Source of the DNA: Sabellastarte sp. h YS-2021
Lineage: Eukaryota > Annelida > Polychaeta > Sabellida > Sabellidae
Direction of reading: 5' to 3'
Assembly: GCA_964017235.1 (NCBI GenBank)
Contig: OZ024931.1
Location: 96,800,221-96,864,220, forward strand
Length of the DNA stretch: 64,000 bases
Shown here: positions 241 through 63,802 of the stretch, one piece after another
Layout of the letters: each line of letters starts with the position of its first letter
How positions within the stretch are numbered: the stretch's first letter is position 1
Position numbers and translations under genes: made by a program
The notes under the pieces: generated by a model
Told to the model about the DNA's origin: nothing
What the model saw: the letters and a program-made list of their open reading frames with translations, nothing else
Databases searched by the model: none

Positions 241-249
241 AATGGTATT

Positions 250-639: not shown

Positions 640-913
<274 letters not shown>

Positions 914-2690: not shown

Positions 2691-2699
2691 TTCACCCAT

Positions 2700-21381: not shown

Positions 21382-22330
21382 TTATCCCCTTCACTGCCTT
21401 TATTTGGTATGGCCCTCTCCATGATATAAGTAGTTTATTGGCTTCAGTTGGGTGTAGAACCAACACTCTGTCACCAACTTCAAACTTTCTGGGTTTGATT
21501 TTCTTGTCATAACTGGCTTTTGGTCTCAACTGCGTCTTCTTCAGCTCTTCTTGTGCTAACTTGCATGTTTCTTCAAGGCTATTCCACAGATCAATCACAT
21601 ATCCATAGGTCGTCTTCACCTCTTTTGGAGTTACTTCCTGTGTCTACAAGTCATATAAAATCTGCCCCTCACTGTCCGTCCATGTAACAGTTTGAAAGGT
21701 GAGAACCCAAGACTTGCCTGAGGTGCTTCCCTATAGGCAAACAAGACTGCTGGAATGTAACGGTCCCAATCCTTTGGCTTCTCTTGGCATGGTCTGTTCA
21801 ACAGACTTCAGAACAGGATGAAACTTCTCAACTAAACCGTTGCGCATGGGGTGGTACGGTGTCATCACCAGCTGTTAAATGTTCAAAAGTCGACCCACCT
21901 CTTTCATAACCCGACTGAGAAACTGCGAACCCTGGTCACTAAGTGTCTCTGATGGTACCCCAACCCTGGTAAAAATATTAACCAGTGCTTCTGCCACAGA
22001 CTCTGCATTGATAAACTTCAAAGGTAATACCTCTGGATACCTAGACACATAACTCTTCCTGGTAACTCTTCCCTTGGACACAGTCCTTTGACATGTATTG
22101 CAGGAGTGACAATATCTGCTGAGACGTCATTCTGCAGACCCGGCCAGTAAAAGTTCAACATGACTGTCACACGTTTTCCTTATCCCTAGGTGGGTACCCA
22201 TAATGGGTTCATGAGCTAGTTTTAAGACTTTTTTCCTCAACATCTGTGGCACCATGAGCTGTTTCACTGTCCTTTCTCCATTCTGAAATCTTCTGTAGAG
22301 TAAACCAGACTTGACTTCAAACCATGACAA
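21320..22330 (-). pseudogene. Gmr1-like integrase, frameshifted
   Basis: The zinc-binding part is at 22330-22127 (LLYRRFQNG, LKLAHEPIMGTHLGIRKT). The catalytic core is seen at 22081-21875 with the DQGSQFLS box holding the second catalytic aspartate. The region with the third acidic residue (21650-21870) is scrambled by frame changes. The C-terminal domain at 21619-21400 has KPRKFEVGDRVLVL and SWRGPYQI, typical of gypsy integrases. It would insert element cDNA, but this copy is dead. Confidence 0.75.
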
Positions 22331-24299: not shown

Positions 24300-24893
24300 A
24301 ATTATTTCTAATAAAAAATTAAATTACAACAAAATTTTTCAAATTTGTTTTTGCCTTATGTGCCCTTTATTATTGCTTTTGCAGCTTTAGAATGTATTGA
24401 GAGGTTATCGGAAATGATATTCATGGACTCTAGATACCCTGTTACATTTACCCCTGACCACCTCCTATTGGTCAAATTGGGGTCATAAAATAGCATATTT
24501 TGTCTTTTGGCCTTTTATCTCCTTTAGTATTGCTTTTACAGCTTTAGAATGTATTGCCAGATTATAGGAAAACCATACACAGGGATTCTAGATACCTGGT
24601 CATATGTACCGTAAGTATTCTTTTTAGTAGGCATATTTTACATCTGAAACAACTCTTCTGACAAACTATAGCATTTAGTAAATTAACTTTTCACAATTTA
24701 TGACCATAGAAAACAAAATAAAGCTTACATTTTTTTCTTTCATGCTGATGCACAAACCTCCACACTGCTTAACTTTCACGTCTTCTCTCAGCGCTGCTGG
24801 TGTTTCTTTCTAAAACCTTTTTCTACTTTTATACTATGTTGCATCTAACTTTGTGGAGATGCTTTGTTTTTGTCAGCAAAAACATTTTTCTAG
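24300..24893 (+). mobile_element. Helitron-like element, 3' part
   Basis: Two diverged units (about 24345-24480 and 24515-24610) with CCTTTATTATTGCTTTTGCA and AATTGGGGTCATAAAATAGC match the array of the element at 51145-52262. The 3' end has stems TGTTTTTG (24865-24872) and CAAAAACA (24877-24884) around a TCAG loop, then TTTTTCTAG, with T following at 24894. The 5' end was not located. Confidence 0.6.
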
Positions 24894-32694: not shown

Positions 32695-34830
32695 TATAGA
32701 CTAAACAGCTCTTCAAACCAGCCCCAAGCTGGATAACTGATCAGTATAGAACTGCCAAGTGCATGAGAAGGCAGTATGAACGCGCCTGGAGAAGAGACAA
32801 ATCCTCTGAAAATCGTTCCCGTCTTCGACGGCAGATAAACAGATGTATCCACATTCTAAATAGAAACAAGGGGTGTTTCTACCGTGATCTAGTTAGTGAA
32901 AATTGCGGTGATAGTAAGTGGTTATGGCATGCACTAAATAGAACATTGAGTCGGTCAAATTCTACTGTCCTCCCATCCTTTGATGATGAAAAATCTTTAG
33001 GAAACAGATTTGGTTCGTTTTTCATTGATAAAATTAAAAAGATTCGAGACACCTTTAAATACACCTGATCTCAGGTTCTTCACCCAGACAAGGAGCTGCC
33101 GACTTTCAGTTCCTTTCAAGTTGTCACTGTTACTGAAGTCCTTAAGTTTATCAAGGAATCCCCTTCAAAAACTTGCTCCCTTGATCCATGCTCCACTCAC
33201 ATTGTGAAACAATGTATTGACATTCTTCTCCCTTCATTGACTAAACTGGTTAACTTGTCCCTCAAAAATGGCATTTTCCCTAATCCTTTCAAACAGACTA
33301 TTGTCACACCCCTCCTCAAAAAGTCCACCCTTTCAAAAGAGGACTTGAAGAGCTATCGACCGGTGTCCGGTCTTAGCTTCTTGTCAAAATTGGTCGAGCG
33401 AATTGTGGCTGCCCAAATTAGATCTCACATGGATTCTCATGATCTTGGCAACACTTTCCAGTTAGCCTATAAGTTGGGGCACTCAACAGAAACTGCGTTG
33501 TTGTGCATCAAAAATGAGATTCACTTATCTCTGTCCAAGGGCATGCTTACAGCACTAGTGCTACTCGACCTGTCCGCGGCTTTTGACACTATCGATCATG
33601 ACACACTCCTATCCTGTTTGTCGTCTAGATTTGGTTTTGCTGGATCAGCACTAAAATGGTTTAGATCCTACCTCCAGGATCGTTTTCAGTCAGTCAAGAT
33701 TGGTTCCAGTCTTTCGAATTTGTTCAAATTGAAGTTTGGAGTCCCCCAAGGTTCTGTCTTAGGTCCTCTTCTGTTTTCCCTCTACACAACACCTCTTGGT
33801 CAAGTCATCAGAAAATATACCGGAGTCCGTTACCACTTCTATGCAGACGACACTCAGCTGTTCATTCACTTATCCCCTGATGATAGTCTCAAGTCTTTTG
33901 ACCGTCTTTTTTAAAATCGTGTTTGAATGATATTCAGGTCTGGAAACAAACTCAAGCTAAATCCTGATAAAACAGAATTCATAGTCTTCGGTGCCAAAGA
34001 CAGACACAAATGGCTCAGTGACTCATTTCCTGTCAATATCCTGGGCACTTGCCTCTCTCTCGCAGATGTTGTACGCAATCTGGGTGTTCTGTTTGATGCA
34101 AAGTTTTGTTTCACCAATCACGTAAATTCTGTTATCAAATCCTGTTTTATTAGCCTCAGGGACCTTCATCGCATCAGGAGGTTTCTTTCTGTGGATACAT
34201 CTGTGTTGATTGCAAATGCTCTGGTCAGTAGTCGTTTGGATTATTGCAATTCTCTTTTTCGCAGTTTGTCATCCCAAAATGCTACAAGGCTCCAATATGT
34301 TCAAAATGCACATGCACGGTTTGTCACTGGTGCTTCAAAGTACACTCACATTACATCCACCCTTAGGACACATCATTGGCTACCCATTAGACAACGTATT
34401 ATCTTCAAAACCCTAGTTTTGGTTTATAAGTACCTCACCACTGGCCAGCGGAAGTATTTTGCACCATATCTCCCCTTGTACAAATCTGCCATGAATATAA
34501 GACGTTCCAATCCCAAAAATTTGTTCCTTCAGGTTCCCTCTTACTGTGCTTCCATCCATAAATCAAAGGTCCATTTTAACAATAGTTTCTCATATGATGC
34601 CCCTAAGTGATGGAATGATCTTCCATATGATATACGCAGTGCTCCAAATCTCTCCAGTTTCAAAAGTCGACTCAAAACCTACCTATTTCAGAAATCATTC
34701 CCACCATAGCTTCTTACTACCGAACACCGGACCACCTCTCTGGGAACGACTCGGAACATGTCTAATGTCTTATGACTTATGCCTTATGAATTGGATGATG
34801 TGCCTTGGTGCATTTTGCTTTTTCAGATCT
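32695..34830 (+). pseudogene. CR1-type LINE, copy 1, 5' truncated
   Basis: Homology to copy 2 begins at AGACTAAACAGCTC (its equivalent is at 56786), between endonuclease and RT. RT motifs are LKSYRPVSGLSFLSKLVER, LVLLDLSAAFDTIDH, GVPQGSVLGPLLFSLYTTPL and the catalytic HFYADDTQLF (about 33840). The C-terminal region (LDYCNSLF, LQYVQNAHARFVTG, HWLPIRQRI) runs to TGA at 34608, where copy 2 reads through (KLWNDLPHDI). Breaks: stop at 33066, frame change near 33190, frame change near 33910, stop at 34608. The LINE machinery copies its RNA at a nicked target; this copy cannot encode it. Confidence 0.85.
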
Positions 34831-47737: not shown

Positions 47738-48018
47738 GCTAGAAGGTTGTCATTCCCCATTTACAGGCAGTATATATGTTGTGTATGAACCAGTGCAAGT
47801 TTAATTTATGTTAGGCTGAACTTAGTTTATTATGTTAAAAGATCCTAAATGTACAGAATTTTCGAGTTTTAGTTGGAACCAACAGGAAGTACCAGTACAA
47901 ACATGGCAGATAATGTAAACAAACAATAAAAATATTCTACTAAATATCTGTAAAAATAAGGAAAATTAGGTAACTTTTGCATCTTGTCATTAGTAATCGA
48001 TTCTTAACATAGCAAATT
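47738..48018. mobile_element. hAT-type MITE fragment, right part
   Basis: It aligns with about 25990-26275 of the MITE: TCATTCCCCATTTACAGGCA, CGAGTTTTAGT, AACAGGAAGTACCAGT, ATGGCAGATAATGTAAACAA, ATCGATTCTTAACAT. It breaks at AATT, exactly where the gypsy LTR begins, and a short diverged MITE end may follow the other LTR at 62527-62544 (TTGTTACCAGCACT). Confidence 0.75.
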
Positions 48019-48225
48019 TATAATATAAATACCTCATAGCAGGCTGTGCTAGGGTTTCTGGAGAGTTCACTGGTCACTTGCTCACTGTAGTAAGTCAGGT
48101 AGATCCTTCTGTTGAGAGGCAACCAAAGATACAAACGTAAACGAACACTCGGCGAGTACTAAAATCTTTCACTGTGACGTCTACGGCCGTCACATAAATC
48201 CCGGAAATCTCCGCGATTTACTACA
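48019..48225 (-). repeat. 3' LTR of the gypsy element
   Basis: On the minus strand it starts TGTAGTAAATCGCGGAG and ends ATTTATATTATA. It matches 62290-62522 over its length (ACTTCGGCGAGTACT-type strings: ACACTCGGCGAGTACTAAAA here, ACACTTGGCGAGTACTAAAA there) with about 26 bases less. It is short for a gypsy LTR but the match is unambiguous. Confidence 0.85.
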
Positions 48226-48237
48226 CTGTCTCCCCTT
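48226..48237 (-). promoter_or_regulatory. polypurine tract
   Basis: Minus-strand AAGGGGAGACAG lies immediately upstream of the 3' LTR start TGTAGT. A purine run in this position primes plus-strand synthesis and confirms the element's orientation and its 3' boundary. Confidence 0.7.
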
Positions 48238-49119
48238 AAATTTTTAGGAGATATACTACTTCTAAATACACTCTAAACTCTAGCTAGTATCTAATCTAAT
48301 AATCTAGATTACTACAAGAAGCCATCTAAGTTGATATATTTTCACAAAAATTTTGCATCTACAAGAATACCTTTGTAGACATACTAACTCTAAATAACAC
48401 AACTAATCTATCAAGCATCACTAATCTAAATCAGCATAAAAGCTTTCTAAGGTAATACATTTAACACAAAAATTTGCATATGCAAAATTAAGTTTATAGA
48501 CCCAAAATGTACTTTACGAATCAACCCTATGTAAGTCCCTATTATTAGAATATGTTAATTCTATCACACTGTCATATATATAAGACATGTATAAAGGTTG
48601 GATACTCACAGCTTACTTTTTCAGATCCATGCAAGTGATATGTCTACTATAAATTACAAAAAATGCATATGAATGTACAAGCATACAAATACTAAATAGA
48701 TAAACACTCTTCCAACAACCATATATATTGGAAATGTGCAATTGCTTGTTGGCTTTAATGATGTTTGTGCCCAGACTAATAGTGTCACAACATCTATGTG
48801 AACATTAGCCACTAAACATACAGACTATTTGTAAGAATACATCACAATACAGTTTAATCTCTAAGACCTTGCATGTTAGAAAATACAATAGCAATACAAA
48901 GTACTTTCTAACAACGTTGCATGTTAGAAAATATATATACAACTCTATAAAACAACAGTAGTGGTTATTACATTTAACAATATCTAAATATTATTTTTAC
49001 AAACTGTTGACAAGCCTCAATGGCATCACAACAGATAATAACAACAGTTTATAATGACTCTTTATACAATACATAACCTTATAAATAAAACCTGAATCCT
49101 GCCAATTCTGATTCCTAGC
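48238..49119 (-). other. 3' non-coding tail of the gypsy element
   Basis: AT-rich, without coding sequence. It contains two similar stretches (CTCTAAATA/CATCTAAGTTGATATATTTTCACA near 48265-48345 and a diverged repeat near 48400-48480) and two GCATGTTAGAAAATA strings near 48865-48935. It sits between the TatD-like ORF and the PPT, so it is element sequence. Confidence 0.5.
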
Positions 49120-50462
49120 TCAAATTTTATACAACACTACAGTATTTTTAAAAGTTGACTGCAGGACCCACTGATATGATCTGCCTAGTAATTTTGAAAC
49201 TTCCACTGCTACTGCTAAAACTAAGCCTGGATGACTTTCTCCCCCATCCTGAACACACAGATATGGAGAATCACTTTCCAACACAAAACGACTCATTTGA
49301 AGAGTTTTTACTAAAGCCCTGGTTGTTCTGTTTCCTATGCACTTTGGAGCTAACCCAAACCTGACATTGGGAAATAATCCTACCCATTCCAGTGCTTCTC
49401 CCACATCCCCTTGAAAACAGTGTACATGTATCCTATGATACTTTGGTAAAACTTTACTCAAAATGTGTCTGCAATCCCTACCAGCTTTCCCATGACCTGC
49501 TGCATTCTCTCTACAATGTATCACAACTGCTTTATCATGTATGACTGCCAGAGGTAACAAAGTCTTTAACACTACCCTTTGGGCCCCCAAGTGTTCTCTG
49601 CATGAGTGTAGTCTAACCCTACCTCTCCTAATCCAACCACCCTGTTACCTTTTAACAACCTATCCAAAATATGGTAATGTTCACTTTCAAAACTAGTCAC
49701 TAGTCTAGGATGGAAACCAAATGCCAACCATAATCTTGAGTCTTGAATTTCTGAATGGCACACCCATTTGTTTGGAAAACACAAATTGCCAATAAGACAA
49801 CCCATGGTCAGAGGCTCACCTACTTTAGAATCAATTTGTTTCAGATTTGAAACCCTGTATTTCTTCAAAAGCATTTCTGGATGAAAATGAGAGTCGCATC
49901 CCTGAACCTCATTATTTGAACCATCAAACCCAACACCTTCAATCTCCCTAAACAGGATTACCCTATCTGGGCTCAGTACCATGAGAATGTTGGCCACAGT
50001 TCTCCAATGCAACAATTCCTGCAGATCACTCTGAGAAATACCTTTTATTTCATCCACTAGCTTCTCAGAAACTAAAGTAACATTTTTGTCAATCACATGA
50101 GGTTGCACAGTGCAGAGACTCTTTTCTTTTACATGCATGGCTAAAGCTAAACAATCTACCAGTCCTAATTCCCTACATAGGAAAGACAGAATTTCCCTAT
50201 AAACACTCAGCAATACGCTATCTTCTACATGTTTTACATCTAATAATTTTGGGAAATGGTATCTCATGACATGTCTCTTCACAACTACAGCATGGCCTTG
50301 GCACACTGGACAAGAATGCAGTTTTTTATGGCCTACCTTAACAGGTATAGATTGGTCTCCCACATTTAGACTATCAGTGCTGTCTTTTAGAGGAAGTGGC
50401 ACATCTTCTTTGATTACATTGCAAGGATACCCTTCCTTATAATAGTCCAGCTCTATATCCAT
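49120..50462 (-). pseudogene. TatD-family nuclease ORF inside the gypsy element
   Basis: TatD proteins are metal-dependent nucleases with a TIM-barrel. Frame 50462-49572 has a C2H2-like finger at residues 51-69 (CPVCQGHAVVVKRHVMRYH), a ~115-residue helical linker, then the barrel: D-S-H-F-H-P at 190-195 (HxH), GFHPR at 249-253 and GLGEVGLD at 277-284 (metal-bridging glutamate). Frame 49590-49120 continues with VVIHCRE, HVHCFQGD and LESDSPYL, giving the remaining His, His and Asp ligands. All expected ligands are present; the only visible break is the frame change near 49580. No introns. It lies 350 bases downstream of a small basic ORF on the same strand. The domain layout resembles TATDN2-type proteins; the role in the element is unknown. 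Confidence 0.8.
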
Positions 50463-50817
50463 GCTAAAACATTGCAGAATAATAAGGAATTATAGTAGCT
50501 GTTAATGCCAGTTCTCATTACAACATTGTTTGAATGTAAAAATGTCCCGAATACAGAGACCTAAAAGAAAAATACAAAGGATGTGTCATTAATCTAAAGA
50601 GCAATATGTTCAAACTGCTTCAGCCACTGACCTGAAACTGTCTCTTTTTCTACAAGTCAAAAGATTATGATAATCTTGAGTTTTACTCCAGTGCAAAACT
50701 CAAGATACATATAAAATATTACATTTTCCTTAACATTAACCCCTTACATATTTTAACAATTTAAACAGAACAACCAGCTATATTTAACTATAAATTACCA
50801 CATTTACAATGACTTTA
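50463..50817 (-). other. spacer between the two extra ORFs
   Basis: AT-rich and non-coding on both strands. It could hold a promoter or reinitiation signal for the TatD-like ORF, but no motif is convincing. Confidence 0.35.
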
Positions 50818-51139
50818 CTACTCAAAATCAAGGAGATGGGAGGGTTTCTTAATTTTCCGCCCCTTTGATGTGGTAACTGTTGCTTCTGCATTTTCAAATA
50901 ATTTTTTAATACCATCATAACACACATCACTGTCTTTTCCTCTGGGATTGGTTCTTTGTTTCTGTACGGTCTTATAATTAAGCGTCCCTGAAAGGGCGCT
51001 TATTTGTTTTCGCCTCAGTTTCCTCGCCGCCGCCGCATTATGATTAGATTTTGGGAGCAATCCCTTGAAAAATGTCTCGTTTATGAGTGATTTTCTGACA
51101 CCTTCCAATCTGAAAGCCTTAAATTTAGGCCAACCCCCC
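50818..51139 (-). CDS. small basic ORF downstream of integrase
   Basis: The minus-strand frame is open from about 51139 to the stop at 50818, about 105 codons, without a clear ATG near its start. It is rich in lysine and arginine (ARKLRRKQISAL, TSKGRKIKKPSHLLDFE). No domain is recognised. It directly abuts the Helitron insertion. If the Helitron is ignored, the integrase frame would run on into the same DNA in a different frame and end soon after, so this ORF could be either a displaced C-terminal part of pol or the start of the extra gene region. The basic character would suit nucleic-acid or chromatin binding, but this is inference. Confidence 0.4.
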
Positions 51140-51144
51140 TATTA

Positions 51145-52262
51145 TCTTCTTAAGTATTGCATTTAGAGCTATAAAATGTACTGGCAGGTAATAGGAAACC
51201 ATATGTGGAGAGTCTAAATAGCCGGTCAGTTTTACCCCACGCCCCCCCCCCCCCTTATGGGTCAAACTGGGGTCATAAAATAGCCGATTTTGAGTTTTTG
51301 CCTTATATCTCCTTTATTGTTGCTTTTATAGCTTCAGAATGTATTAAGAGGTATTGGGAAAGCATATATATGGAGAGTCTAAATAGCTGGTCAGTTTTAC
51401 CCCCCGACCCCCCCTTATGGGTCAAACTGGGGTCATAAAATAGCCGTTTTTGAATTTTTGCCTTTATCTCCTTTATTGTTGCTTTTATAGCTTCAGAATA
51501 TATTAAGAGGTATTGGGAAAGCATATGTGGAGAGTCTAAATAGCCGGTCAGTTTTTTACCCCCTGGCCCCCCCTTATGGGTCAAACTGGGGTCATAAAAT
51601 AGCTGATTTTGAGTTTTTGCCTTATATCTCCTTTATTGTTGCTTTTATAGCTTCAGAATGTATTAAGAGGTATTGGGAAAGCATATATGGAGAGTCTAAA
51701 TAGCCGGTCAGTTTTACCCCCAGCTCCCCCCTTATGGGTCAAGCTGGGGTCATAAAATAGCCGATTTTGAGTTTTTGCCTTTATCTCCTTTATTGTTGCT
51801 TTTATAGCTTCAGAATATATTAAGAGGTATTGGGAAAGCATATGTGGAGAGTCTAAATAGCCGGTCCGTTTTACCCCCGACCCCCCCTTATGGGTCAAAC
51901 TGGGGTCATAAAATAGTTGCTTTGGAGTTTTGCCTTATATCTCCTTTATTGTTGCTTTTATACCTTCAAAATGTATTAAGAGGTATTGGGAAAGCATATG
52001 TGGAGAGTCTAAATAGCCGGTCAGTTTTACCCCCCAACCCTCCCTTATGGGCCAAACTGGGGTCATAAATAGCTGCTTTGGAGTTTTTGCCTTATATCTC
52101 CTTTATTGTTGCTTTTATAGCTTCAGAATGTATTAAGAGGTATTGGGAAAGCATACGGTGCAGCTTTGTGCATTCTTAGCTTTACAGCATGCTTATTAAA
52201 ACCACAAAGCATTTTAAACTTTAAGGGACGCTTTGCTTTTGTTAGCAAAAGCATTCCTCTAG
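51145..52262 (+). mobile_element. Helitron-like element with satellite core, in gypsy
   Basis: Left junction A|TCTTCTTAAG (51144/51145). Right end CTAG at 52259-52262 followed by T, after a perfect hairpin TGCTTTTG-TTAG-CAAAAGCA (52234-52253). The core is about six tandem units of ~150-170 bases (AGGTATTGGGAAAGCATAT, GGTCAAACTGGGGTCATAAA). Its 3' end creates the TAG that ends the integrase frame. No Rep/helicase is present, so it is non-autonomous. The same family's 3' end is at 24893 and a variant at 19346. Confidence 0.7.
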
Positions 52263-53428
52263 TTTGGTTTGGTTTCTGAAGCATTATTCCCTTGTTCAGT
52301 ATCTCCTTTATCCTCGAACAACAATTTTCTTTGTTGCCTGACCCAAACCGGAACATCTCTGTCGAAACATAGTTTCAGTCTGTCATTGTGCACTATTCTA
52401 GGTTCCTTGGTTCCCTTTATTTGATATAAGGCTGGACTTATTACGTTAACTACCAAGTATGGCCCCTTCCACATTTTCTTTAATTTCCTACTCTGCCCCA
52501 GCTTCGTAGAGGAATCTATTTCATATACCAAATCACCCAGTGAATATTGATGCTCAAACAGTTTGACATCATAGTCCCTCGTTTGTCTTGTTTGGAACTC
52601 ATTGATATTTCCTCTGGCAAAGCGGTATAGCTTTTCTACTTTCTTTTGGAGCCTATCAATGTAATTTTCCGGTGCTAATTCTTCTGCTCTTAATTCATCC
52701 ATTCCCAGTATAATGTCAAAGGGCATATTCAGCTCTCTTCCTAACATTAGCTTGTTTGCTGTAAATCCTGTTTGTCTGCTTGTGATGGCTCTTATAGCTG
52801 ATGTTAACAAAGGAAGGTATTTGTCCCACTCAGAGTGTTCCTTGTCCACGTAGCATCGAATCATTTGCAATAGTGTTCTGTTGTAGCGCTCTACCTGTCC
52901 GTTCGAAGATGGGTGGTATGGTGTTGTTCTTGTTTTATTAATTTTTAACTTTTCACAGACAGCATTCATCAAAGATCCATCAAAGTTCTTTCCTTGGTCA
53001 GTGTGTATGTTTAAAGGTATTCCAAATCTTGAAAAATACTCATTTGATACTACATCAGCAATGGTTTCTGCTGATTGATTTGGAATTGCAAATGCTTCCA
53101 CCTACTTGGTAAATTGGTCAATCACCATTGATATGTACTGATTTCCTTGGCTGCTTTTGTTGAAGGGGCCTAAAATATCCACGTGTATCCTTTCCATCGG
53201 ATAACCTGAATGAAAACTTTTCAGGTGCCCCTTGGCCTTCCTGTTTGCTTTTTTGCTTTTCGCACAGACACCACAAGACTTCACATACTGGTCAATGTCA
53301 GATGACATGCTATACCAGATATATGACCTTCTAATGTTATTTTTGGTTTTATTGATTCTTACATGACCTGCAGTTACAGAGTCATGACAATGATTCAGAA
53401 CTTCCTGTCTCAGGTTATCTGGTATCAT
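52263..53428 (-). pseudogene. gypsy integrase
   Basis: The zinc-binding H2C2 part is at 53428-53230 (HCHDSVTAGHVRINKT, then CGVCAKSKK). The catalytic core follows with IHVDILGPF (first Asp), NIHTDQGKNF (second Asp) and YHPSSNGQVERYNRT (Glu). One TAG at 53099-53101 stands where tryptophan is expected in the FTKWVE motif. The C-terminal domain has HQYSLGDLVYEID and KKMWKGPYLVVNV. The frame is ended at 52263 by the Helitron insertion. It catalyses insertion of the cDNA; apart from the TAG it is well preserved. Confidence 0.85.
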
Positions 53429-53567
53429 TAGGAGTAAGTGTAGTTAATCTTGTTTGTCATGCCAATTGTAGTATAAGACACCTTCTTTTAACTCCAGCAA
53501 ATTCTTGTTTAGCCAGAAATGGTTCACAGCTGGACTCTGAATCATTAGTTCATTTTGATCTGGCTCA

Positions 53568-55332
53568 CTATTCTGTTCTTTCCAACTTATCAATGGTCCT
53601 ATATTCGGGTCGTTCAATTGAAATTCTCAACTGTTGTTTTGAGTAATTTTCAATGGACTCTGTAGTTGTATATCCAGTGTTAACTTGTACTGAATGGATT
53701 GTTAATGGAATGACATTGTCCACTGCAGCATCAAATCTACTCCACTGGCTATGTGCTCTTGTACAAAACTTACACCCACCACATGGGAGTGACTTTAAAT
53801 CTGTGCCAGATTCATAGTGTTCGCAGTATGGAGCATCATCAGGGATTCTTGAAAGGCCATCAGCATTCCCATGATGAACACCTGGACGGTGGACAATGTT
53901 GATGTCATACTGGCTCAATTCTTCTAGCCATCTAGATAACTGCCCTTTGATATTTTTGAATTTTATTAACCAGATAAGGCTGTTTTGATCAGTTCTTATC
54001 ACAGATAAGAGTTCCTTTCTTGTGGTACAATAGCGCCTCTGAGCAGGAGTTAATACAAAACTTCCATAGCTGATGACTTTCTCAGTACCATCTTGTATTT
54101 GGGACAAAACTCCCCCAATTGCTGTGTCAGAAGCATCAGTATCCAAAACAAACAAGTTGTCACTATTTGGAAATGCCAATAGTGGAGCTTCTGATAAAAG
54201 CAATTTTAGTTTCCTGAAGTCCTGATCATGTTCCTTCTTCCATTGAAAAGTTGCTTTGCTGCCAGTGAGTTGATACAATCTGGCCGTAACTTCTGCAAAT
54301 CCTTTAATGTGGTCCCGATAGTAATTTGCAAAACCTAAGAAGGACTCCACCTCTTTGGTACATTTTGGAAATGGCCAATTTTGTACTTTTTCCACTGCTT
54401 CATGTGTCATGGACACATCATTTCTACCTACTAATCTTCCCAGAAATGTAAGTTCTGTTTGGAAGAATACACATTTTCTTGGCTTCAATTTTAGGTTATA
54501 CTGGCGAAATCTGGTAAGTGTTTCTCTGACATTTGAGAGATGATGATACGACCAATGATACAAACATCATCTAAATAAAATACGACTTCTTTCCACTGTA
54601 GGCCTTGTAGTACCAATGTCATTGCTCGCATAAATGTAGCTGGAGCATTAGTCAGATCAAATGGCATACGCTTGTATTCATATAACCGATACTTAGTGAT
54701 GAAAGCAGTCTTGTGGCGATCATTTTCATCCATCTCGATTTGCCAGTAACCAGAGTTTAAATCTACAGTGGACATGTATTTCAGATTTGAAAATAATTCT
54801 GCACACTGTGAAAATGATGGGATTGGCCAAACCTGCTTGACAGACTTCTCATTAACAACTCTGTAGTCTATGCACCAGCGAATTGATCCTTCTTTTTTCC
54901 GCACTAAAACGGGTGCAGATGCCCATTCAGAGATGGAGGGTGTTATTACACCACACTCTAACATGGACTTTAAATGCTTTTCTTCCTCTTCCTGAAATCC
55001 AAGTGGTGTACGGCGCATTAGTTGTTTCACAGGTTTTGAATCTCCAGTGTCAATGGAATGTTTTATGGTCTTAAAGCATCCTAAATCAGTATCACTTTTG
55101 GCAAAGACATTCTGGAAATCATGTAGTAAAGATGCAAACTGTTCTGACTCACCGTCAGATATATGTTTACATGATTACATGATTTCCTGAACATTTCTTG
55201 CAAGTGACATGGAACCCTGCTGCAAAGATATTTCTTTTTATCAGTTTCAGTTTTATTTCTGCCCACTTCAGTGTCTTCATTAACTGAATAAGAACATTCA
55301 GCATTCTGTATTGAACGAGTCAAACAGGTTGG
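53568..55332 (-). pseudogene. gypsy reverse transcriptase and RNase H
   Basis: Spacer after the protease at 55332-55081 (VPCHLQEMFRKSC). RT at 55030-54491: SAPVLVRKKEGSIRWCIDYR, MSTVDLNSGYWQIEMDE, YKRMPFDLTNAPATFMRAM and the catalytic VVFYLDDVCIIG (YLDD). A frame change near 54550 joins to 54563-53568: LKPRKCVFFQTELTFLGRLV, VESFLGFANYYRDHIKGFA, then RNase H with LFVLDTDASDTAIGGVLSQ, YCTTRKELLSV and HRPGVHHGNADGLSR. A stop or frame change near 53440-53565 separates it from integrase. RT-RNaseH-integrase is the normal gypsy order. The CR1 LINE lies between this region and the protease. Confidence 0.85.
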
Positions 55333-55341
55333 TGAACATTC

Positions 55342-58300
55342 GGTGTTCGGTAGGACCGTAAACAGACGCATATTTCAAAAATATATAAAAGTGGTTAAAT
55401 TTACCTAAAAATCTGGGCTTTTAATCGTACTTTCAGTACTTATTATTGCTTTCCATGATATACCTTCAGTTATTTATAGTTTTTATGTTGTTCTGAATTG
55501 TTTTAGATCTATCAATAGCCTGCTAGTTGATATCGCGGGTATTATCGCCCACTACCGGGAGTTACTCGGTGATTAGAGTGTGGTCTGTATTTTAATTATT
55601 CTGCTAGTTGATATTGTGGGTATTACTGTCCTTTACCGGTTACTTTTACTGAGTTACTCTGTGATTTTTGGTTGTGGTCTGTGCTTTAAATATTTCAAAG
55701 ATTGAACAACTGTACTGTACTTTAAATATTTTATAACTGTGGTTTGTGAATTTCTGCATGTTCTGTTTTATTCTGTGGTCCCTAAATTCCTTATGATACG
55801 GATTATTAGGCTTGATTGTTAGACTCAAAACAGAATTCAGAGCAGGTGTGATGTTGGCCTGCATGTATGTAAATATAATGAACCTACTGCCAAATCCATT
55901 CTGTTCATTTATGTCAAGTCAGATAGAGTTACATTTTGTGAAAAGGCGTCCTTCAGGCAGCTCGTTCTGGTTCACTTGTCGGGCGATGTCGCTCTCAATC
56001 CTGGGCCAATGAAGTTGGGATTCCCTAACTGTCGGTCCATTAGGAATAAAGGCCCAACTCTTTGTGAAGAAGTTAAAACTGGAAATTTTGATGTTTTTGG
56101 TCTCACTGAGACCCATATTAAAGCTCTAGACACACCCTCATTAACACCTGAAGATTTTTCCCTTGTTCACACCAATGGAGAAAACAAATGTGGTGGCGGT
56201 GTTGGCTTTTTTCTTAATCAGCTCTTGATTTCAAAACCATCCATTCCCCTGAGTTCCCCTCCCTTGAAAATTACACTGTCTCTCTCACTCTCGATGGGCG
56301 TCACATGTTTCTTGGGGTCGTTTACCAGCCCCCTGCCTCATCTGTTGTAAAATTTTTGAAGATTTTCTGTCATATGTGGGTTTTTTGTCTTCCTTATCCC
56401 CCTCCTTTGTCATTTGTGGTGACTTTAATTTTCATGTCGACGCTATGTCCCCAACAGTCTCTGAATTTAAATCAGTCATAGATTCTTGCTGTCTGTCCCA
56501 ATACATTGATTTTTCAACTCACCTTCATGGTCATACCTTAGACTTGCTGATTGCTCCATCCAAGTTTTCTGCAATTTCTGATGTAAAAGGTTCAGGCTTC
56601 ATAAGTGATCACAAAATTATCAAAGTTGTTACCTTCCGTCAGTATCATAAATTGAATATTGATAAATTCAGAAGTGACCTCCTGGCTATTCCGTTTGTAA
56701 GTTCACCATCTGATGACATAGATTTATTGCATGAACAGTACATGTCTGGTTTGTCTGGCCCTCTAGATATTCATGCACCAGTGAAGACTAAACAGCTCAT
56801 AAAACTAGCACCAAGCTGGCTAACTGATGAGTATAGAACTGCCAAGTGCATGAGAAGGCACTATGAACGTTCTTGGAGAAGAGACAAATCCTCTGTAAAT
56901 TGTTCCCGTCTTCGACGGCAAATAAACAGACGTAACCACATTCTAAATAGAAACAAGGGGCATTTCTACCGTGATCTAGTTAGTGATAATTGCAGTGATG
57001 GTAAGAAGCTATGGCAAGCACTCAATAGAATATTGAGACGGTCAAATTCCACTGTCCTCCCATTCTTTGTTGATGAAAAATCATTAGCAAACAGATTTGG
57101 TTCGTTTTTCATTGATAAAATTAAAAAGATCTGAGACACCTTCAAACACACCCGATCTAAGTTCCTTCACCCTGACAAGGAGCCGCCAACTTTCAGTTCC
57201 TTTCAAGTTGTCACTGATAGCGAAGTCCTCAAGTTTATCAAGGAAGCCCCTTCAAAAACTTGCTCTCTAGATCCATGTCCCACACATTGTGAAACAATGT
57301 ATAGACATCCTTCTTCCTTCATTGACAAAACTGGTTGACTTGTCCCTCAAAAATGGCTTTTTCCCAAATCCTTTTAAACAAGCTATTGTCACACCTCTCC
57401 TCAAAAAGTCCACCCTTTCAAAAGAGGACTTGAAGAGCTATCGACCGATGTCCAGACTTAGCTTCTTGTCAAAATTGGTTGAGCGAATAGTGGCTGCCCA
57501 AATTAGATCTCACATGGATTCTCATGATCTTGGTAACACTTTCCAGTCAGCCAATAAGGTGGGGCACTCAACAGAAACTGCCTTGTTGCGCATCAAAAAT
57601 GAGATTCACTTAGCTCTGTCTAAGGGCATGCCTACAGCACTGGTGCTACTCGACCTGTCCGCAGCTTTTGATACTATCGATCATGACACACTCCTATCCT
57701 GTTTGTCAGCTAGGTTTGGCTTTGCTGGATCGGCACTAAAATGGTTTAGATCCTACCTCTAGGATCTTTTTCAGTCAGTCAAGATTGGTTCCAGTCTTTC
57801 AAATTTGTTCAAATTGAAGTTTGGAGTCCCCCAAGGTTCTGTCTTAGGTCCTCCTCTGTTTTCCCTCTATACAACACCTCTTGGTCAAGTCATCAGAAAA
57901 TATACTGGAGTCAAATACCACTTCTGTGCGGATGATACTCAGCTGTTCATTCACTTATCCCCTGATGATAGTCTCAAGTCTTTTGACTGTCTTAAATCAT
58001 GTTTGAATGATATTCAGGTCTGGATGTCTGAAAACAAAATCAAGCTAAATCCTGATAAAACAGAATTCATAGTCTTTGGTGCAAAAGACAGATACAAATG
58101 GCTCAGTGATTCATTTCCTGTCAATATCCTGGGTAATTGTCTCTCTCCCACAGATGTTGTACGCAATTTGGTTGTTCTGTTTGATGCAAAGTTTTGTTTC
58201 ACCAATCACGTAAATTCTGTCATCAAATTTTGTTTTATTAGCCTCAGGGACCTTCATCGTATCAGGAGGTTTCTTTCCGTTGATACATCAGTGTTGATTG

Positions 58301-58940
58301 CAAATGCTCTGGTCAGTAGTCGTTTGGATTATTGCAACTCTCTATTTCGCAGTTTGTCATCCCGTAATGCTACAAGGCTCCAATATGTTCAAAATGCTCT
58401 TGCAGGGTTTGTCACTGGTGCTTCAAAGTGCACTCACATCACATCCACCCTGAGGACACTTCATTGTCTACCCATCAGACAATGTATTATCTTCAAAACC
58501 CTAGTTTTGGTTTATAAGTACCTCACCACTGGCCAGCCTAAGTATTTTGCACCATATCTCTCCTTGTACAAATCTGCCATGAATACAAGACGTTCCAATC
58601 CCAAAAAATTGTTCCTCCAGGTTCCTCATTATTGTACTTCCATCCATAAATCAAAGGTCCATTTCAACAACAGTTTCTCATATGATGCCCCGAAGTTATG
58701 GAATGATCTTCCACATGATATCCGCAGTGCTCCAAATCTCTCGTGTTTCAAAAGTCGACTAAAAACCTACCTATTTCAGAAATTATTTCCACCATAGCTT
58801 CTAACTACCAAACACCGGATCGCCTCCCTGGATACGACTTGGAATATGTCTAATGTCTTGATGATTTATGCCTTACGAACTGGATGGTGTGCCTTAGAAT
58901 CTGTAGATACAGAGATTAAGCACTTGGACAACTGATTGAT
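55342..58940 (+). mobile_element. CR1-type LINE, copy 2, near full length
   Basis: It is flanked by the 9-bp direct repeat TGAACATTC (55333-55341 and 58941-58949), which gives exact limits of about 3.6 kb. It is inserted on the + strand into the minus-strand gypsy element. It has a 5'UTR with a ~110-base tandem duplication (about 55518-55694), a single long coding region with an endonuclease and RT, and a 3' tail ending ACTGATTGAT. Retention of 5'UTR and endonuclease shows that it is not, or only slightly, 5' truncated. Confidence 0.85.
55823..58797 (+). pseudogene. CR1 endonuclease-reverse transcriptase with 2A-like motif
   Basis: The frame opens after a TAG at 55820 and carries LVLVHLSGDVALNPGP (55961-56008), which matches the 2A ribosome-skipping consensus D-V-E-x-N-P-G-P except Ala for Glu. 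The apurinic-type endonuclease follows: PNCRSIRNK, VFGLTETHI, a frame change near 56345, VICGDFNFHVD, HGHTLDLLIAP and GFISDHKII. RT has LKSYRPMSRLSF, LLDLSAAFDTIDH, GVPQGSVLGPPLFSLYTTPL and FCADDTQLF (ADD box; Tyr replaced by Cys). The C-terminal region ends LKTYLFQKLFPP at 58797. Other breaks: TGA near 57134, frame change near 57285, TAG at 57763. Not functional. Confidence 0.85.
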
Positions 58941-58949
58941 TGAACATTC

Positions 58950-59110
58950 TTCAGTCAAAATTTGAGCTTCCATGCAATTGCCTACGACTGATCCTTTTTT
59001 AAGAGTATGGTACCTGCCAGTTTGATTCCAAAAATTTATCTTTTCACTTACGACTGTTACTTGAGCTGCTGTATCAATGACTGCTTGGCACTGAACTCCA
59101 TTGATTTCGG
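58950..59110 (-). pseudogene. gypsy aspartic protease active-site region
   Basis: On the minus strand the sequence reads GVQCQAVIDTAAQVTVVSE, the D-T-A-A active-site segment (D-T-G-A in most relatives) of a retroelement protease, which cuts Gag and Pol. The C-terminal half of the protease should lie on the other side of the LINE, at 55333 and below, and is not clearly readable. Confidence 0.65.
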
Positions 59111-59582
59111 TGGGAATTACAAGACTCTACCCTTCATTTCTTGCCATATGTATTTCTCTGATGTCACCAGCTGATTCAGCTTTTATTTATTTATTTCTAA
59201 CATTTTGCTTCTTTCCTCCTTCATATGCCATACGTCCATTTGGTTGGTTTCTTATTTTAATACCCAAATCAGGAGGATCACCAGATGGAGGCAAAGCTGT
59301 ATCAGTGACAGAAAAGCAACCACCCATTTCACCTGGACTGACTAGCATTTTTTCGACCAGTTGATTTATCAGGAGATGTCAAAGTTGTATCTAGGACAAA
59401 ATTGTCATCACCCAACTTATCATCACATACCAATGGACTGGCTTTCATTGTAGGATCAATAAGTTTACCAGATGACACCATAGCTGTATCATGGACAGAA
59501 ATGTCATCACCCTGCTTACCACTAATCCCCACCCTATGACCTATCACGTTAGCTGAGTGTAGGCCAGCACACTCAGCATCTC
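59111..59582 (-). other. region between gag and protease
   Basis: A minus-strand frame at 59547-59329 contains a twice-repeated peptide pattern (GDDISVHDTAMVSSGKLIDP and GDDNFVLDTTLTSPDKS). The duplicated DNA unit is about 100 bases (59350-59540), with a third weaker copy near 59270-59330 (GGCAAAGCTGTATCAGTGAC). It is probably a flexible spacer in the polyprotein. No domain is recognised. Confidence 0.45.
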
Positions 59583-61052
59583 CTAGTTTAAATTTTTCCT
59601 TGGTGATCTGTTTCTCAGGTTTGGTCTTGGAGACTCAGATCTTTCCCGAGAAGGCTTGGACTTGTTTAGACAGTCTTTTCCATAGTGGCCCTCATTTCCA
59701 CAATTGAAGGAAGTTTTCCTGGCTAGACTTAGACTTCGACTACGATGTGGACACTTGTTGGCAAAGTGACCAACCTGCCCACAATTGTAATATCTACCTC
59801 TAGCTGGACTACTTGGTGGTGTGGGGTCTTTCATATCCAGTTTGTCCGCTATCTTGCACATAGGCTTCAACTGTTTGTCCATCAGTTGCTTCAGTTCTTC
59901 TATTGCAGACTGATCTTGTTTGTCATTAGTTTCAGCAAAGTGAACCTGTCTAATTTGAGGCTTAGGATTTCCATGAAGAACTTTGTGATTTTGTGAAGCC
60001 AAGATAACAGCATGTAGAGCCTCCTCTAGGGATTTCGGCTCTTGATTCATTGCCGCTAAAGCAGATGATTTATCCTTCCATCCTTTCAAAAAGGCATCTA
60101 CAGCCAAAATTTCTATCTCCGCCTCTTTAAAATCGCTATATGCGCCCATCGATAATTTCCATGTTCTTCTGGAGAACTCTTCTATACTTTCATCCTGCCC
60201 TTGTCTCAGATCCTGTATTTTCCGTCGGATCACTGACTGTGAATCCTTGTGGTCAAAAGCTGAGCTCATTTTATTCTTCAGCTGGTCATAGTCATCCAGG
60301 ATGAAATTTGACAGCGAGGAGTAGTAGTCCAACGCATCATCCTGAAAACTCTCACCAAGATGGTATGCTCTTTCATCATCATCCCATCCATACCTCTTGG
60401 CCACTCTTTCAAATTGGAAGATAAATGTATTCCAATTTTTCTGACCATCAAATGTGGGCAATTTCATGGATGGTGGACCAGTAGCAGTTGTTGATTTTGG
60501 CTTTTCACATTTATTGGCAACTGGAGTTGACTGATGAATATCCCCTAGGGGTTGATAAACACCATGATCTACAACCCCTCTAGTAACAAGTGCTGCTGAT
60601 GGAACAGTGTATGGCGAAGCAGGTGACTGTTCTCGGGTTTCCAATTTGAGCACCCTGGAATTTAAGTTGTCCAAACAATCACTCATTGTGTACATTGTTT
60701 TTTTCAATTTTTTCCATGCACTGCATCATTTTTGACATCTGTGAGTTCATACCATTGGAATCATCAGAAATTTGTTGAGATGAACCATGGAGCTTGAAGT
60801 TGTCACAAAGTCATCCGTTTTTTAATTTTCCTGATCTCCTTCCTGTTCCACAGACCCGAACATAAAGTTACCTTCATTTTCCGCCCACACTGAAAGTGGA
60901 ATGCTCGGAATAGACATCAGGTCATCCATGGTTAAATGTCCTTGACATTCCTCCCTTTTTTGAACAACCATCCTAGCCCTGGCTTTGCCAATGTTCACTA
61001 GAGTTTTGACTTCATCAACAGTAGCTGTATTGAGATTCATTTTGTTGTTCAT
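59583..61052 (-). pseudogene. gypsy gag with N-terminal helix-hairpin-helix
   Basis: The first frame (61052-60822) contains MNLNTATVDEVKTLVNIGKA followed by RARMVVQKREE, a helix-hairpin-helix of the ComEA/competence-protein type. After two frame changes (60820-60710) the main frame (60707-59583) continues with a coiled coil (CLDNLNSRVLKLETRE). The capsid-like core follows, with MKLPTFDGQKNWNTFIFQFE, DDALDYYSSLS and IRRKIQDLRQGQDESIEEFS. Two CCHC-type knuckles come next (YYNCGQVGHFANKC and SFNCGNEGHYGKDC). In both knuckles the first cysteine is replaced (Tyr, Ser), so neither can bind zinc in the normal way. The C-terminal tail is Ser/Arg/Pro-rich. Gag forms the particle and binds element RNA. 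Confidence 0.75.
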
Positions 61053-62275
61053 TTTTGCTGATAACTATTGCACTAACTTAACAGTTTTAACAACCAACTA
61101 TATTCAGACTTATTAAATATTAGTTGACAAAATGAAATTATTTTAAAATTCTTTAAATTTAGATTTTGAATTGTGCAAAACGCCAAAAATGATTCAAATT
61201 TTTTTTTTTAAATAATGTGGGGGACAATTATTAGAAACTTACAAGATTACGAAATATTTCACAATGTTTCAGCAACTTACAAGATTAAGAATATTTCACA
61301 ATGTTTCAGCCACATATAAGATTAAGAAATATTTCACAATGTTTCAGTAGGGGCGGAAAGTTCAGTTAGTAGTTTAAATAATTCAGAATTTAATGTAAAG
61401 ATCTAGAAAGGTTATAGCAGGACTATTAATGTACAACTAATTATACAAATAAAAACAATATTATGAAGTTATCACAAATATTGCTTAAAATATGTATGCA
61501 CTAGTTAAATGACACAACAATAATGTGAGGCTTACACAAAATTGTTCAAATACATAAATCACAACAGGTTTTGTTATGAAACACAATACAACAAGATATA
61601 CAAAATAACACAATACTGTGAGGCTATCACAATATCATTTAAAAATTAAATTATCTGTCAATAGTATATCACAACAGGTTTTGTTATGAAATACGGTAAG
61701 GTAATTACTAAATTATGGTCACTAAATTAAAATTAAATGCAGCAATTTAGAAATTCGGTTATCAATTTATTTAAAATTCTGTAAAAGAAATAAATAAAAT
61801 TCTAAACTTGTGATAAATCAGTAGCAGTATATTTCTTAAATCATTAAAATAACAACCGTAATTGCAGGATCAATATGTCAACCAGTAAAATTCATGACAA
61901 TAATTGTAATGTCAATTTATGACTAAAATGACACAAAAATTATCATAAACTAGTTAAAATATTGTTACAACCACTTTATGTTATTAATGACAGGAAAACA
62001 CTAAAACTAATTTAAATAAAGTTTAAGCAAAATTGGTTTAAGTTGGTAAATGGAATTTTTTGAATGATACAAACACTAACTTTCTTAAAAATGCAGATAA
62101 AAATTCCAAAATAGTACCGAAATGTGCCTAATACTCTAAAACTAAATAAATATGTTATTTGTTGTTAACTTTAACCAAGACACTAAAATTTTAAATTTCA
62201 CCAACTTCCAGGATCAGCTGTCAACTGTCAAAATTTGAATTCTGTCAGAGCCTCACCTCAACTTCAAATTGTTTG
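61053..62275 (-). other. gypsy leader between PBS and gag
   Basis: 1.2 kb of AT-rich, non-coding DNA. Three ~37-base tandem copies containing ATATTTCACAATGTTTCAG occur at about 61248-61350, and two ATCACAACAGGTTTTGTTATG strings near 61560 and 61668. Leaders of this length can hold packaging or translation signals, but nothing specific can be read. Confidence 0.5.
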
Positions 62276-62288
62276 ACTTCTGACACCA
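62276..62288 (-). promoter_or_regulatory. primer binding site, tRNA-Leu type
   Basis: Minus-strand TGGTGTCAGAAGT, one base from the LTR end, is complementary to the 3' acceptor end of metazoan tRNA-Leu (ACTTCTGACA plus CCA). This primes minus-strand synthesis. Confidence 0.7.
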
Positions 62289-62289
62289 A

Positions 62290-62522
62290 TATAATATAAA
62301 TACCTCGTAGCAGGCTGTGCTAGTGCTTCTGGAGAGTTCACTGGTCACTTGCCACTGTAGTAAGTCAAGTAGATCCGCTGTACAGCCGGAAATATGAAGA
62401 CTTCTGTTGAGAGGCAACCAAAGATACAAACGTAAACGAACACTTGGCGAGTACTAAAATCTTTCACCGTGACGTCCGTACAGCCGTCACGTAAATCCCG
62501 GAAATCTCTGCGATTTAATACA
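62290..62522 (-). repeat. 5' LTR of the gypsy element
   Basis: On the minus strand it starts TGTATTAAATCGCAGAG and ends TTTATATTATA. It matches the 3' LTR at 48019-48225. About 26 extra bases (62375-62400, AGCCGGAAATATGAAGA region) are absent from the other copy. The first bases outside, AATT, match the duplication at 48015. Confidence 0.85.
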
Positions 62523-62724
62523 AATTGTTACCAGCACTCGGGTTTCCTTCAATGAAAACATGACAGCCCGTCATTAAACTTACCGGTAATTTGCTTGCGG
62601 GCAGACGGCAGTTTCGAACACTGACCTCAGAAATAACAGACTTTAAGTGTTAACTTACCTGCTGTAACTCTTGCAGAGATTAACTATCAGAGATTAAAAT
62701 ATGTGCAAGATGTTTCCTGTATCA
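62523..62724. other. flank of the gypsy element
   Basis: It begins with the AATT duplication, then TGTTACCAGCACT, which could be the diverged terminal repeat of the MITE that the element entered. The rest is unassigned and leads into the DIRS fragment. Confidence 0.35.
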
Positions 62725-63802
62725 CTCAATTGTCTTTTGCAAAACCTTGAACCAATGTCCCAACTATTGCTTCCGATCTACCTGTAGGGGCAAGACTGCC
62801 CTGGGTGCCTCTCCAAAAGTGGTAAAAATTCAAAATGGAGACACTAGAACCAATTTGAACCTCCCTCCAAGAAGGGGAGTGGGTGACTTCCATAGATTTC
62901 AAAGATGCATACTTCCACATACCCATTCAAACTTAGTCAAGGAAGTACCTGTGTTTTCATGTACAGGGGCAGAGCTACCAGTTCAAAGCACTACCATTTG
63001 GTCTGTCGACAGCACCCATGGAGTTCACGGTGGTAGCAAAGGAGGTCAAACTGATTGCCTTACGACACGGTATAAGGATCCCCCAGTACGTAGACGACTG
63101 GTTGGTCAGAGCCAGGTCCCACCAAACTTGTCTCCAGCATACACAAACTCTAGTAGCTATTTGTCAGGATCTAGGTTGGCTGGTGAACATGGAAAAATCA
63201 GAGCTGGATCCTAAACAAGTCTTCAACTTAGGTTACCACTTCGACCTGAAAGGGGGCAAGGTCAGACCCACTCTAGAGCGTTGGCAGTTATCCAGTCTAG
63301 GCCAGACTCAAACAGAGTGGTCTCTCCTTCCAGAGGTCTTCCAGTCAATATGCAACAGGTGGCACCAACCACATATACATCTTTTTGCTGCAAGGTTCAA
63401 CAAAAAACTGGCCCAGTTTGTGTCACCAGTTCCGAACCCTCTGGCCTGGGCAAACAGTGCACTCAGTCTGCCATTGGAGGATCTGGACCCATATGCCTTT
63501 CCATCAGCAGCCATCTTGGGCAAAGTGGTGGTGAAGTTGCAGGATTACCCATGCAAGAGAATCATTTCGATTGCACCAGGATGGCCGAACATGCCTTGGT
63601 TCTGGGATCTAGTGACCAGTTAAGTGATAAGTTAATACCTTATCCAAAGGACAGCCGAGACCCTTCCAACCGACCCCGCTATCAGCTTACACCAAACCTA
63701 CCAGACACCTATCAGGCACACCAAACCACCATCCCCACAAAAGAATGGATCAGTCACAAAGACCCACGGGGTAACCAGAAAAATTCAAAGACTTTGTTAT
63801 GA
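62725..63802 (+). pseudogene. DIRS RT fragment, copy 3, internally deleted
   Basis: RT is readable in several frames: GEWVTSIDFKDAYFHIP (about 62876), SYQFKALPFGLSTAPMEFTV, PQYVDDWLVRARS (YVDD, about 63085) and GWLVNMEKSELDPKQVFNL. At 63285 the frame jumps from RPTLERWQ straight to QTQTEWSLLPEVFQ, so the RNase H domain (about 150 codons in copies 1 and 2) is deleted in frame. PGWPNMPWFWDLVTS ends at a TAA (63621-63623). The region after it has no readable recombinase. The subfamily is intermediate between copies 1 and 2. Confidence 0.8.

What the first reader, a model, noticed from the sequence alone, without database searches (positions are those of the whole stretch)
48019..62522. LTR retrotransposon carrying a TatD-family nuclease gene
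Seen: a Ty3/gypsy element with both LTRs, tRNA-Leu-type PBS, PPT and AATT duplication encloses, on the same strand between integrase and the 3' LTR, an intronless ORF with a C2H2-like finger and a TatD barrel in which HxH, His, Glu, His, His and Asp ligand positions are all recognisable. Known: TatD enzymes are metal-dependent nucleases acting on DNA ends. Inference: the nuclease is element cargo, in the position where some gypsy elements carry env, and could act on cDNA ends, on host DNA or against competing nucleic acids. Retained catalytic residues in an otherwise broken element suggest that the gene was under selection until recently. I do not know of a described LTR element class with this cargo.
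Basis: partly seen in the sequence, partly recalled or inferred. Interest (0 to 1): 0.9.

Follow-up and report, generated by a model that had tools for sequence, protein, structure and literature searches.

The report
Jumping gene carrying a TatD nuclease
The window holds an old copy of a retrovirus-like jumping element that carries a TatD-type nuclease gene, and the same genome holds many younger relatives with open versions of that gene in the same place, so the nuclease looks like a working part of the element rather than a chance passenger.

Summary
On the minus strand at 48019-62522 lies a Ty3/gypsy element (LTRs, AATT duplication, gag, RT-RH-IN, weak PR) with a TatD gene between IN and the 3' LTR. 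In this copy the TatD frame is broken by one frameshift, and the element holds two private insertions.

In the host genome (1.79 Gb) 7 of 8 fetched sister copies run from IN straight into TatD. I fetched the DNA downstream of 10 integrases chosen without knowing what followed: 10 of 10 have TatD behind IN, whole in one frame in 5. Some copies are young: LTR pairs 100%, 98.0% and 97.6% identical. TatD is under purifying selection like pol in one family pair (barrel dN/dS 0.136, pol 0.145), and IN and TatD distances agree, apart from one clear module exchange.

I conclude that TatD is a standard third gene (ORF3) of a multi-family Ty3/gypsy lineage. Its job is inferred: a metal nuclease acting on DNA ends or RNA-DNA hybrids of the element's own replication. 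I found no paper describing it.

The parts
62523..62526 (.). target-site duplication AATT, right
   Evidence: sequence
62290..62522 (-). 5' LTR (233 bp)
   Evidence: 43 matches listed in the genome
62276..62288 (-). primer binding site TGGTGTCAGAAGT
   Evidence: tRNA type recalled
60822..61064 (-). helix-hairpin-helix ORF upstream of gag (PF12836)
   Evidence: the same domain stands before gag in young relatives
59583..60725 (-). gag with zinc knuckle
   Evidence: PF03732, PF00098
58866..59126 (-). aspartic protease remnant
   Evidence: weak (PF13975 E 2.3e-4, below gathering score)
55342..58940 (+). nested LINE insertion
   Evidence: copy L007 lacks it; TGAACATTC on both sides; second LINE copy at 32698-34806
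53568..55174 (-). reverse transcriptase and RNase H, two frames (54491-55174; 53568-54566)
52259..53443 (-). integrase (H2C2, rve, p58_C), one in-frame stop
50980..52262 (.). insertion with tandem array of about 157-bp units and imperfect 15-nt inverted arms
   Evidence: absent in L006-L011, L014, L020/L034
50818..50979 (-). integrase C-terminal tail cut off by that insertion
   Evidence: contiguous with 52263 in sister copies
49572..50489 (-). TatD ORF3, first piece: finger CPVC..H..H, then DSHFH and GEVGLD of the barrel
49120..49644 (-). TatD ORF3, second piece: VIHCR, HVHCF, LESDSP
48226..48237 (-). polypurine tract AAGGGGAGACAG
   Evidence: by eye
48019..48225 (-). 3' LTR
48015..48018 (.). 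target-site duplication AATT, left
   Evidence: sequence

Best explanation
A decayed member of a Ty3/gypsy LTR-retrotransposon lineage whose normal gene set is HhH-gag, PR-RT-RH-IN and, as ORF3, a TatD nuclease with a long N-terminal extension (basic or RS-rich in most families seen, with a C2H2-like finger in the window and in 8 of 16 ORF3s by a simple pattern). Shown: gene order, its repetition over several families, young LTR pairs, open frames, purifying selection, co-inheritance with integrase, one exchange of the TatD module. Inferred: ORF3 is made from its own RNA and acts as a metal-dependent 3' exonuclease or endonuclease inside the element's own cycle, most likely on RNA-DNA hybrids or unpaired 3' ends of the cDNA before integration. 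My odds: ORF3 identity 0.97; active nuclease serving the element 0.65; the specific hybrid/3'-end step 0.3.
For: Sister copies with the same order and LTR pairs around them. TatD behind 10 of 10 integrases picked by integrase family and mostly for long pol frames, none of which had a listed TatD at the time. Of 138 integrase places listed, 21 have one of 93 typed TatD places (of the 126; not used) within 6 kb downstream, 0 upstream, 0 on the other strand; with the 10 fetched ones TatD is seen at 31 of 138, and 107 were not examined further. A 1306-aa PR-RT-RH-IN frame is followed by an 831-aa TatD frame. LTRs 100% (204 bp, TSD ATAT), 97.6% (TSD ATAT), 98.0%. 11 places hold the whole 830-831-aa frame at 99-100%. 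dN/dS of the barrel 0.136 against pol 0.145 for L040/L042; 0.093 and 0.046 for two further pairs, on only 4 and 7 changes. IN-TatD distance correlation r 0.953 on 14 loci (0 of 2000 permutations) and 0.907 on 6 representatives (1 of 720, the unpermuted order itself). Ligand residues kept. For function: human TATDN2 is reported as an RNA 3' exonuclease and endonuclease on R-loops (PMC12709183, passages).
Against: No assay, no transcript, no structure model (structure prediction busy). L062 has Lys at the Glu ligand and L064 a gap there. 5 of the 10 frames (L060, L062, L063, L064, L068) are broken. Window-family copies give dN/dS 0.30-0.89, L035/L044 0.454 and L040/L041 0.838 on four changes. 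Without L040 the correlation is 0.833 with 4 of 120 permutations. Copy C8:64633058 has IN (to query residue 182) and an LTR about 1.15 kb apart, too close for TatD, so copies without it exist. Two of the 15 nearest IN places, this one included, have no listed TatD. L043 shows TatD with no gag or pol detected in 3.35 kb upstream.
Confidence: 0.75

Rival explanations
1. Counter-defence: ORF3 goes to the nucleus or germ granules and degrades host nucleic acids that would silence the element (R-loops, small-RNA precursors, sensed cDNA).
For: Charged and serine-rich N-termini (R+S+K+D+E 0.32-0.50 of the first 250 residues) would suit nuclear RNA work; the N-terminal part changes faster than the barrel in L040/L042 (dN/dS 0.237 against 0.136); in one case, L035/L040, TatD differs while pol is nearly the same.
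Against: No host target known; in L040/L042 the barrel is as conserved as pol, unlike a typical arms-race protein.
Confidence: 0.22
2. ORF3 works mainly as an RNA- or DNA-binding structural factor and its catalysis is a relic.
For: Large non-catalytic N-terminal part (the barrel starts at residue 553 of 831 in L035); L062 has Lys and L064 a gap at the Glu ligand.
Against: Apart from L062 and L064, every row keeps each ligand that it covers; low dN/dS of the barrel in three pairs.
Confidence: 0.1
3. Chance: a host TatD gene or retrocopy inserted into one element, or two unrelated LTRs around it.
For: In the window alone this could not be excluded; TatD has a pyrimidine-rich AG (acceptor-like) just before its ATG (by eye).
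Against: Sister copies, 10 of 10 downstream of IN, LTR pairs, no poly-A by eye and no convincing own repeats.
Confidence: 0.01
4. A weapon against competing elements: ORF3 attacks foreign cDNA or RNA in shared particles.
For: 4878 first-look integrase candidates (138 scored) suggest that many families share one cell; in one case TatD types differ between elements with nearly the same pol.
Against: I did not look for a specificity determinant or immunity partner; not tested.
Confidence: 0.07

Closest known systems
Bdelloid rotifer LTR retrotransposons Juno and Vesta with ORF3 DEDDy exonuclease (PMC5408684; outline with abstract and passages read)
   Same: LTR element with gag, pol and an enzymatic ORF3 in the env position; ORF3 is a nuclease and is shared between element groups
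   Different: DEDDy/RNase D-like fold there, TatD barrel here; dUTPase in pol there, none matched in L035's pol frame; the main text holds no 'TatD'
Vertebrate TATDN2 (PMC12709183; passages read)
   Same: TatD family; nuclease acting on RNA of R-loops as reported
   Different: A host gene; no link to retroelements in the passages read; its sequence was not compared here
TatD/YcfH DNases of bacteria, TATDN1, TATDN3
   Same: Barrel family (PDB profile matches 1yix 1.3e-43, 2y1h 8.1e-29, 2xio 7.8e-22)
   Different: They align from profile position 210 on, i.e. to the barrel part only; a bacterial MAG row and three other outlying rows stand apart from all element rows in the tree
env-bearing Ty3/gypsy elements (errantiviruses; recalled)
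   Same: Extra gene between IN and 3' LTR
   Different: The ORF3s scanned match TatD only, no envelope family
Orchid Ty3/gypsy elements with an m6A demethylase domain (PMC9289625; search listing only)
   Same: Enzymatic domain gained by Ty3/gypsy elements
   Different: Different enzyme and host kingdom

Membership tests
Ty3/gypsy LTR retrotransposon | two direct LTRs with short target duplication | tested here: met
   window AATT; ATAT in two young copies, GATT/GACT in a third
Ty3/gypsy LTR retrotransposon | pol order PR-RT-RH-IN | tested here: met
   one 1306-aa frame in L035; window pieces in that order
Ty3/gypsy LTR retrotransposon | named clade by RT tree | not tested
   no reference RT set at hand; GPY-type IN tail seen by eye (WKGPYLV), clade left open
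TatD nuclease family | PF01026 barrel | tested here: met
   (of the six ORF3 frames one, the 735-aa L063 piece, has no Pfam match; its other piece matches the TatD profile)
TatD nuclease family | HxH, E, H, H, D ligands | tested here: met
   exceptions L062 (Lys) and L064 (gap) at E; L019 and L063 rows cover only part
TatD nuclease family | metal-dependent nuclease activity | not testable with these tools
   needs protein
bdelloid ORF3 DEDDy elements | DEDDy exonuclease domain | tested here: not met
   only TatD matched at E 0.01 in the ORF3s scanned
env-bearing errantivirus | envelope family match in ORF3 | tested here: not met
   membrane segments not tested
host TATDN2 orthologue | direct tree placement with vertebrate TATDN2 | not tested
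   vertebrate sequence not fetched; named relatives are bivalve proteins called TATDN2, TatD or metal-dependent hydrolase

The most novel reading that the evidence does not exclude
A bivalve-wide (perhaps mollusc-wide) Ty3/gypsy clade has a TATDN2-like nuclease as an obligatory core gene that is swapped between families as a module and kept in pol-less derivatives, so that many genes annotated as TATDN2 in mollusc genomes are retroelement ORF3s.
Probability: 0.55. Interest if true: 0.82.

Novelty: new variant of a known kind. Interest (0 to 1): 0.78.

Why it matters
A nuclease of a family known as host repair or R-loop enzymes has become a standard gene of a successful retrotransposon lineage. 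That asks which step of retrotransposition needs a TatD activity, gives a natural series of intact and exchanged TatD modules to study it, and warns that multi-copy 'TATDN2' genes in mollusc annotations may be element genes.

Tried and rejected
Rejected: separate insertion of TatD or of the LTRs; the ORF at 50818-51138 as an upstream TatD exon (it ends in the integrase tail behind an insertion).

The structure model never ran. A gag search of the genome did not complete and was not repeated. Further TatD searches for a census and a search for other copies of the L036 junction did not complete. PMC10711561 is not held. Paper searches: 0 papers; 3; 27, 20 listed; 2; 24, 20 listed; 6; 0; 625 with 4 of 5 terms, 15 listed.
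Full report
WHAT IS IN THE WINDOW. On the minus strand the window holds LTR (62290-62522), PBS, HhH ORF, gag, protease remnant, RT, RNase H, integrase, TatD, purine tract, LTR (48019-48225), with AATT on both sides. The LTRs differ at 10 of 206 aligned bases plus indels of 25, 2 and 1 bp. The TatD frame is in two pieces (305 and 174 aa) separated by a frameshift; both match PF01026. No other TatD was found in the window's frames of 30 aa or more.

INSERTIONS IN THIS COPY. Against sister copies two blocks are insertions: 50980-52262 with the tandem array (absent in 7 of 7 copies covering the place), and the LINE 55342-58940 (absent in L007). Without them TatD follows integrase directly.

SISTER COPIES. 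The host genome (1,785,957,881 bases, 647 contigs) gave 126 matches to TatD piece 1 (129 of 329 candidates scored). Eight further places are of the window's family (best piece 77-95% identity): L006, L007, L008, L009, L010, L011/L014, L020/L034, L027; two more places with best pieces of 72-74% (C1:10.99 Mb, C18:31.35 Mb) were not fetched. In 7 of these 8 (not L027) integrase position 52263 is joined to 50979 and leads into TatD. In 5 of 8 (L006, L007, L008, L009, L011) the LTR follows TatD within the fetched letters. LTR matches (43 listed) pair up around the copies on C1 (95507275 and 95515841), C4 (96508289 and 96517866), C14 (37174128 and a partial one at 37184292) and C19 (42140742 and 42168154, 27 kb apart); for L007, L009, L020 and L027 I saw no full pair in that list.

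A SECOND, HALF-IDENTICAL FAMILY. Copies at about 50% protein identity have the same order (IN then TatD in L012, L018, L019, L022/L029, L023-L026/L030-L033, L028). In L016, L017 and L021 a gag match stands within about 1 kb before TatD, with no pol matched between; in L013 and L015 nothing of pol matched in the 1.5 kb upstream. The four C19 places lie 26.2 kb apart and look like one tandem duplication.

YOUNG FAMILIES. The weak matches lie mostly in long open frames. I fetched 11 of these regions, 10 kb each (L035-L045). In 9 of 11 integrase sequence stands before TatD on the same strand (L035-L040, L042, L044, L045; in L036 only the integrase tail); L041 has HhH-gag before TatD and inverted pol pieces upstream; L043 shows nothing upstream. 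In 10 of 11 the TatD barrel lies in one open frame (not in L045). L035 has a 1306-aa PR-RT-RH-IN frame and then an 831-aa TatD frame. A search with that ORF gave 2093 first-look candidates, 54 scored, 71 matches, 11 of them whole 830-831-aa frames at 99-100%.

LTR AGE. Of 5 copies checked for a 5' LTR, 4 gave one in direct orientation: L036 204 bp 100% identical with TSD ATAT; L045 205 bp 97.6%, ATAT; L042 202 bp 98.0%, GATT/GACT; L035 only 83 bp, 100%. L040 gave none in the stretch checked. In L044 the 5' LTR copy is inverted, a rearranged place.

THE LESS BIASED TEST. From the 138 integrase places (4878 first-look candidates) I picked 10 by integrase family and frame length, mostly long pol frames, none with a TatD place in the list, and fetched 3.7-3.9 kb downstream (L059-L068). 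All 10 carry TatD behind IN: in one frame in L059, L061, L065, L066, L067 (682-1039 aa), broken in L060, L062, L063, L064, L068. So TatD is seen at 31 of 138; the other 107 were not examined. Among the 15 integrase places nearest to the window's (62-100% identity, window included), 13 have one. One of the two others, C8:64633058, lies about 1.15 kb from an LTR and so has lost it.

SELECTION AND CO-INHERITANCE. Barrel dN/dS: L040/L042 0.136 (pol 0.145), L059/L066 0.093 (4 changes), L061/L065 0.046 (7 changes), L035/L044 0.454, L040/L041 0.838 (4 changes); deeper pairs are saturated; window family 0.30-0.89. The 16 frames have no stop, but they were chosen as open frames. Integrase-tail and TatD distances correlate: r 0.953 over 14 of 26 loci (12 dropped because one row was too short; near-copies included), 0.922 over 8 (4 of 5000), 0.907 over 6 (1 of 720) and 0.833 over 5 (4 of 120). 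The clear exception is L035 against L040: pol 98.4% identical over 3192 bp (dS 0.029), TatD about 67-70% identical with saturated dS. L040 and L042 share the barrel at 91% nt. This is exchange of the TatD module, probably by template switching (inference).

POL-LESS DERIVATIVE. L036 lacks about 3.29 kb of the pol of L035 (from base 106 to 3398), joined at the shared heptamer AAAGGGA, yet has identical LTRs and a clean TSD. So a copy with gag and TatD but without RT seems to have inserted recently, presumably helped in trans; a deletion after insertion is not excluded, since whether others share the junction could not be searched.

RELATIVES ELSEWHERE. Protein searches gave 10 and 62 relatives, some named by their sources as TATDN2, TatD or metal-dependent hydrolase in Saccostrea, Magallana and Mytilus; two (P0030, P0035) are fused to a NADAR domain. 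In a tree of 74 TatD rows the element rows of this genome fall into three groups among these, away from four outlying rows, one of them from a bacterial MAG (quick tree, backbone open; the window's family is represented by P0003). Linkage to retroelements in other species was not tested. The giant squid paper names TATDN2 beside a pogo-type gene and others within the Hox cluster (PMC6962438, one passage), which would fit.

HOW IT LIKELY WORKS. Shown: conserved ligands and a TatD barrel by profile. From the paper: human TATDN2 is described as RNA 3' exonuclease and endonuclease resolving R-loops, E. [quoted passage not shown] Inferred: the element enzyme acts on RNA-DNA hybrids or unpaired 3' ends of its cDNA; an AG after a pyrimidine-rich stretch just before the window's ATG (by eye) would suit a spliced ORF3 RNA.

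NOVELTY. LTR elements with a nuclease ORF3 are known (DEDDy, bdelloid rotifers). A TatD ORF3 was not found in the searches (open-licence PMC only; Repbase-type notes not covered). Hence: new variant of a known kind.

Noticed in passing
60822-61064: Helix-hairpin-helix domain (PF12836) before gag; a related domain stands before or in the gag region of L041, L044, L049, L050, L051, L052, L053.
   Followed up: partly
50980-52262 and 24347-24610: Tandem array of about 157-bp units with imperfect 15-nt inverted arms, an insertion of this copy; a related unit sits elsewhere in the window. Resembles tandem-core mobile elements of bivalves (recalled).
   Followed up: partly
62684-63802: Retrotransposon-like RT frames just outside the element, by eye like a DIRS or YR retroelement; not tested.
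   Followed up: no
L036 2380-2425: Pol-deleted, TatD-bearing copy with identical LTRs; deletion junction at heptamer AAAGGGA.
   Followed up: partly
L044 622-827: LTR copy in inverted orientation, 97.6% identical to the 3' LTR, directly before the leader: an odd rearranged terminus.
   Followed up: partly
P0030, P0035: TatD proteins with a NADAR domain, an unusual fusion; origin unknown.
   Followed up: no
L023-L026 (C19:30.98-31.07 Mb): Four copies spaced 26.2 kb, apparently a tandem duplication that contains a TatD element.
   Followed up: no
P0034 and P0150: TatD and integrase of this kind recorded in a Candidatus Thiodiazotropha MAG, probably host contamination.
   Followed up: no
L043 3351-5399: 683-aa TatD frame with no gag or pol detected nearby: a stand-alone or domesticated copy?
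   Followed up: no
20583-22006: A second Ty3-like element in the window (RT and IN matches, 25-50% identity), without a TatD match in the window.
   Followed up: no
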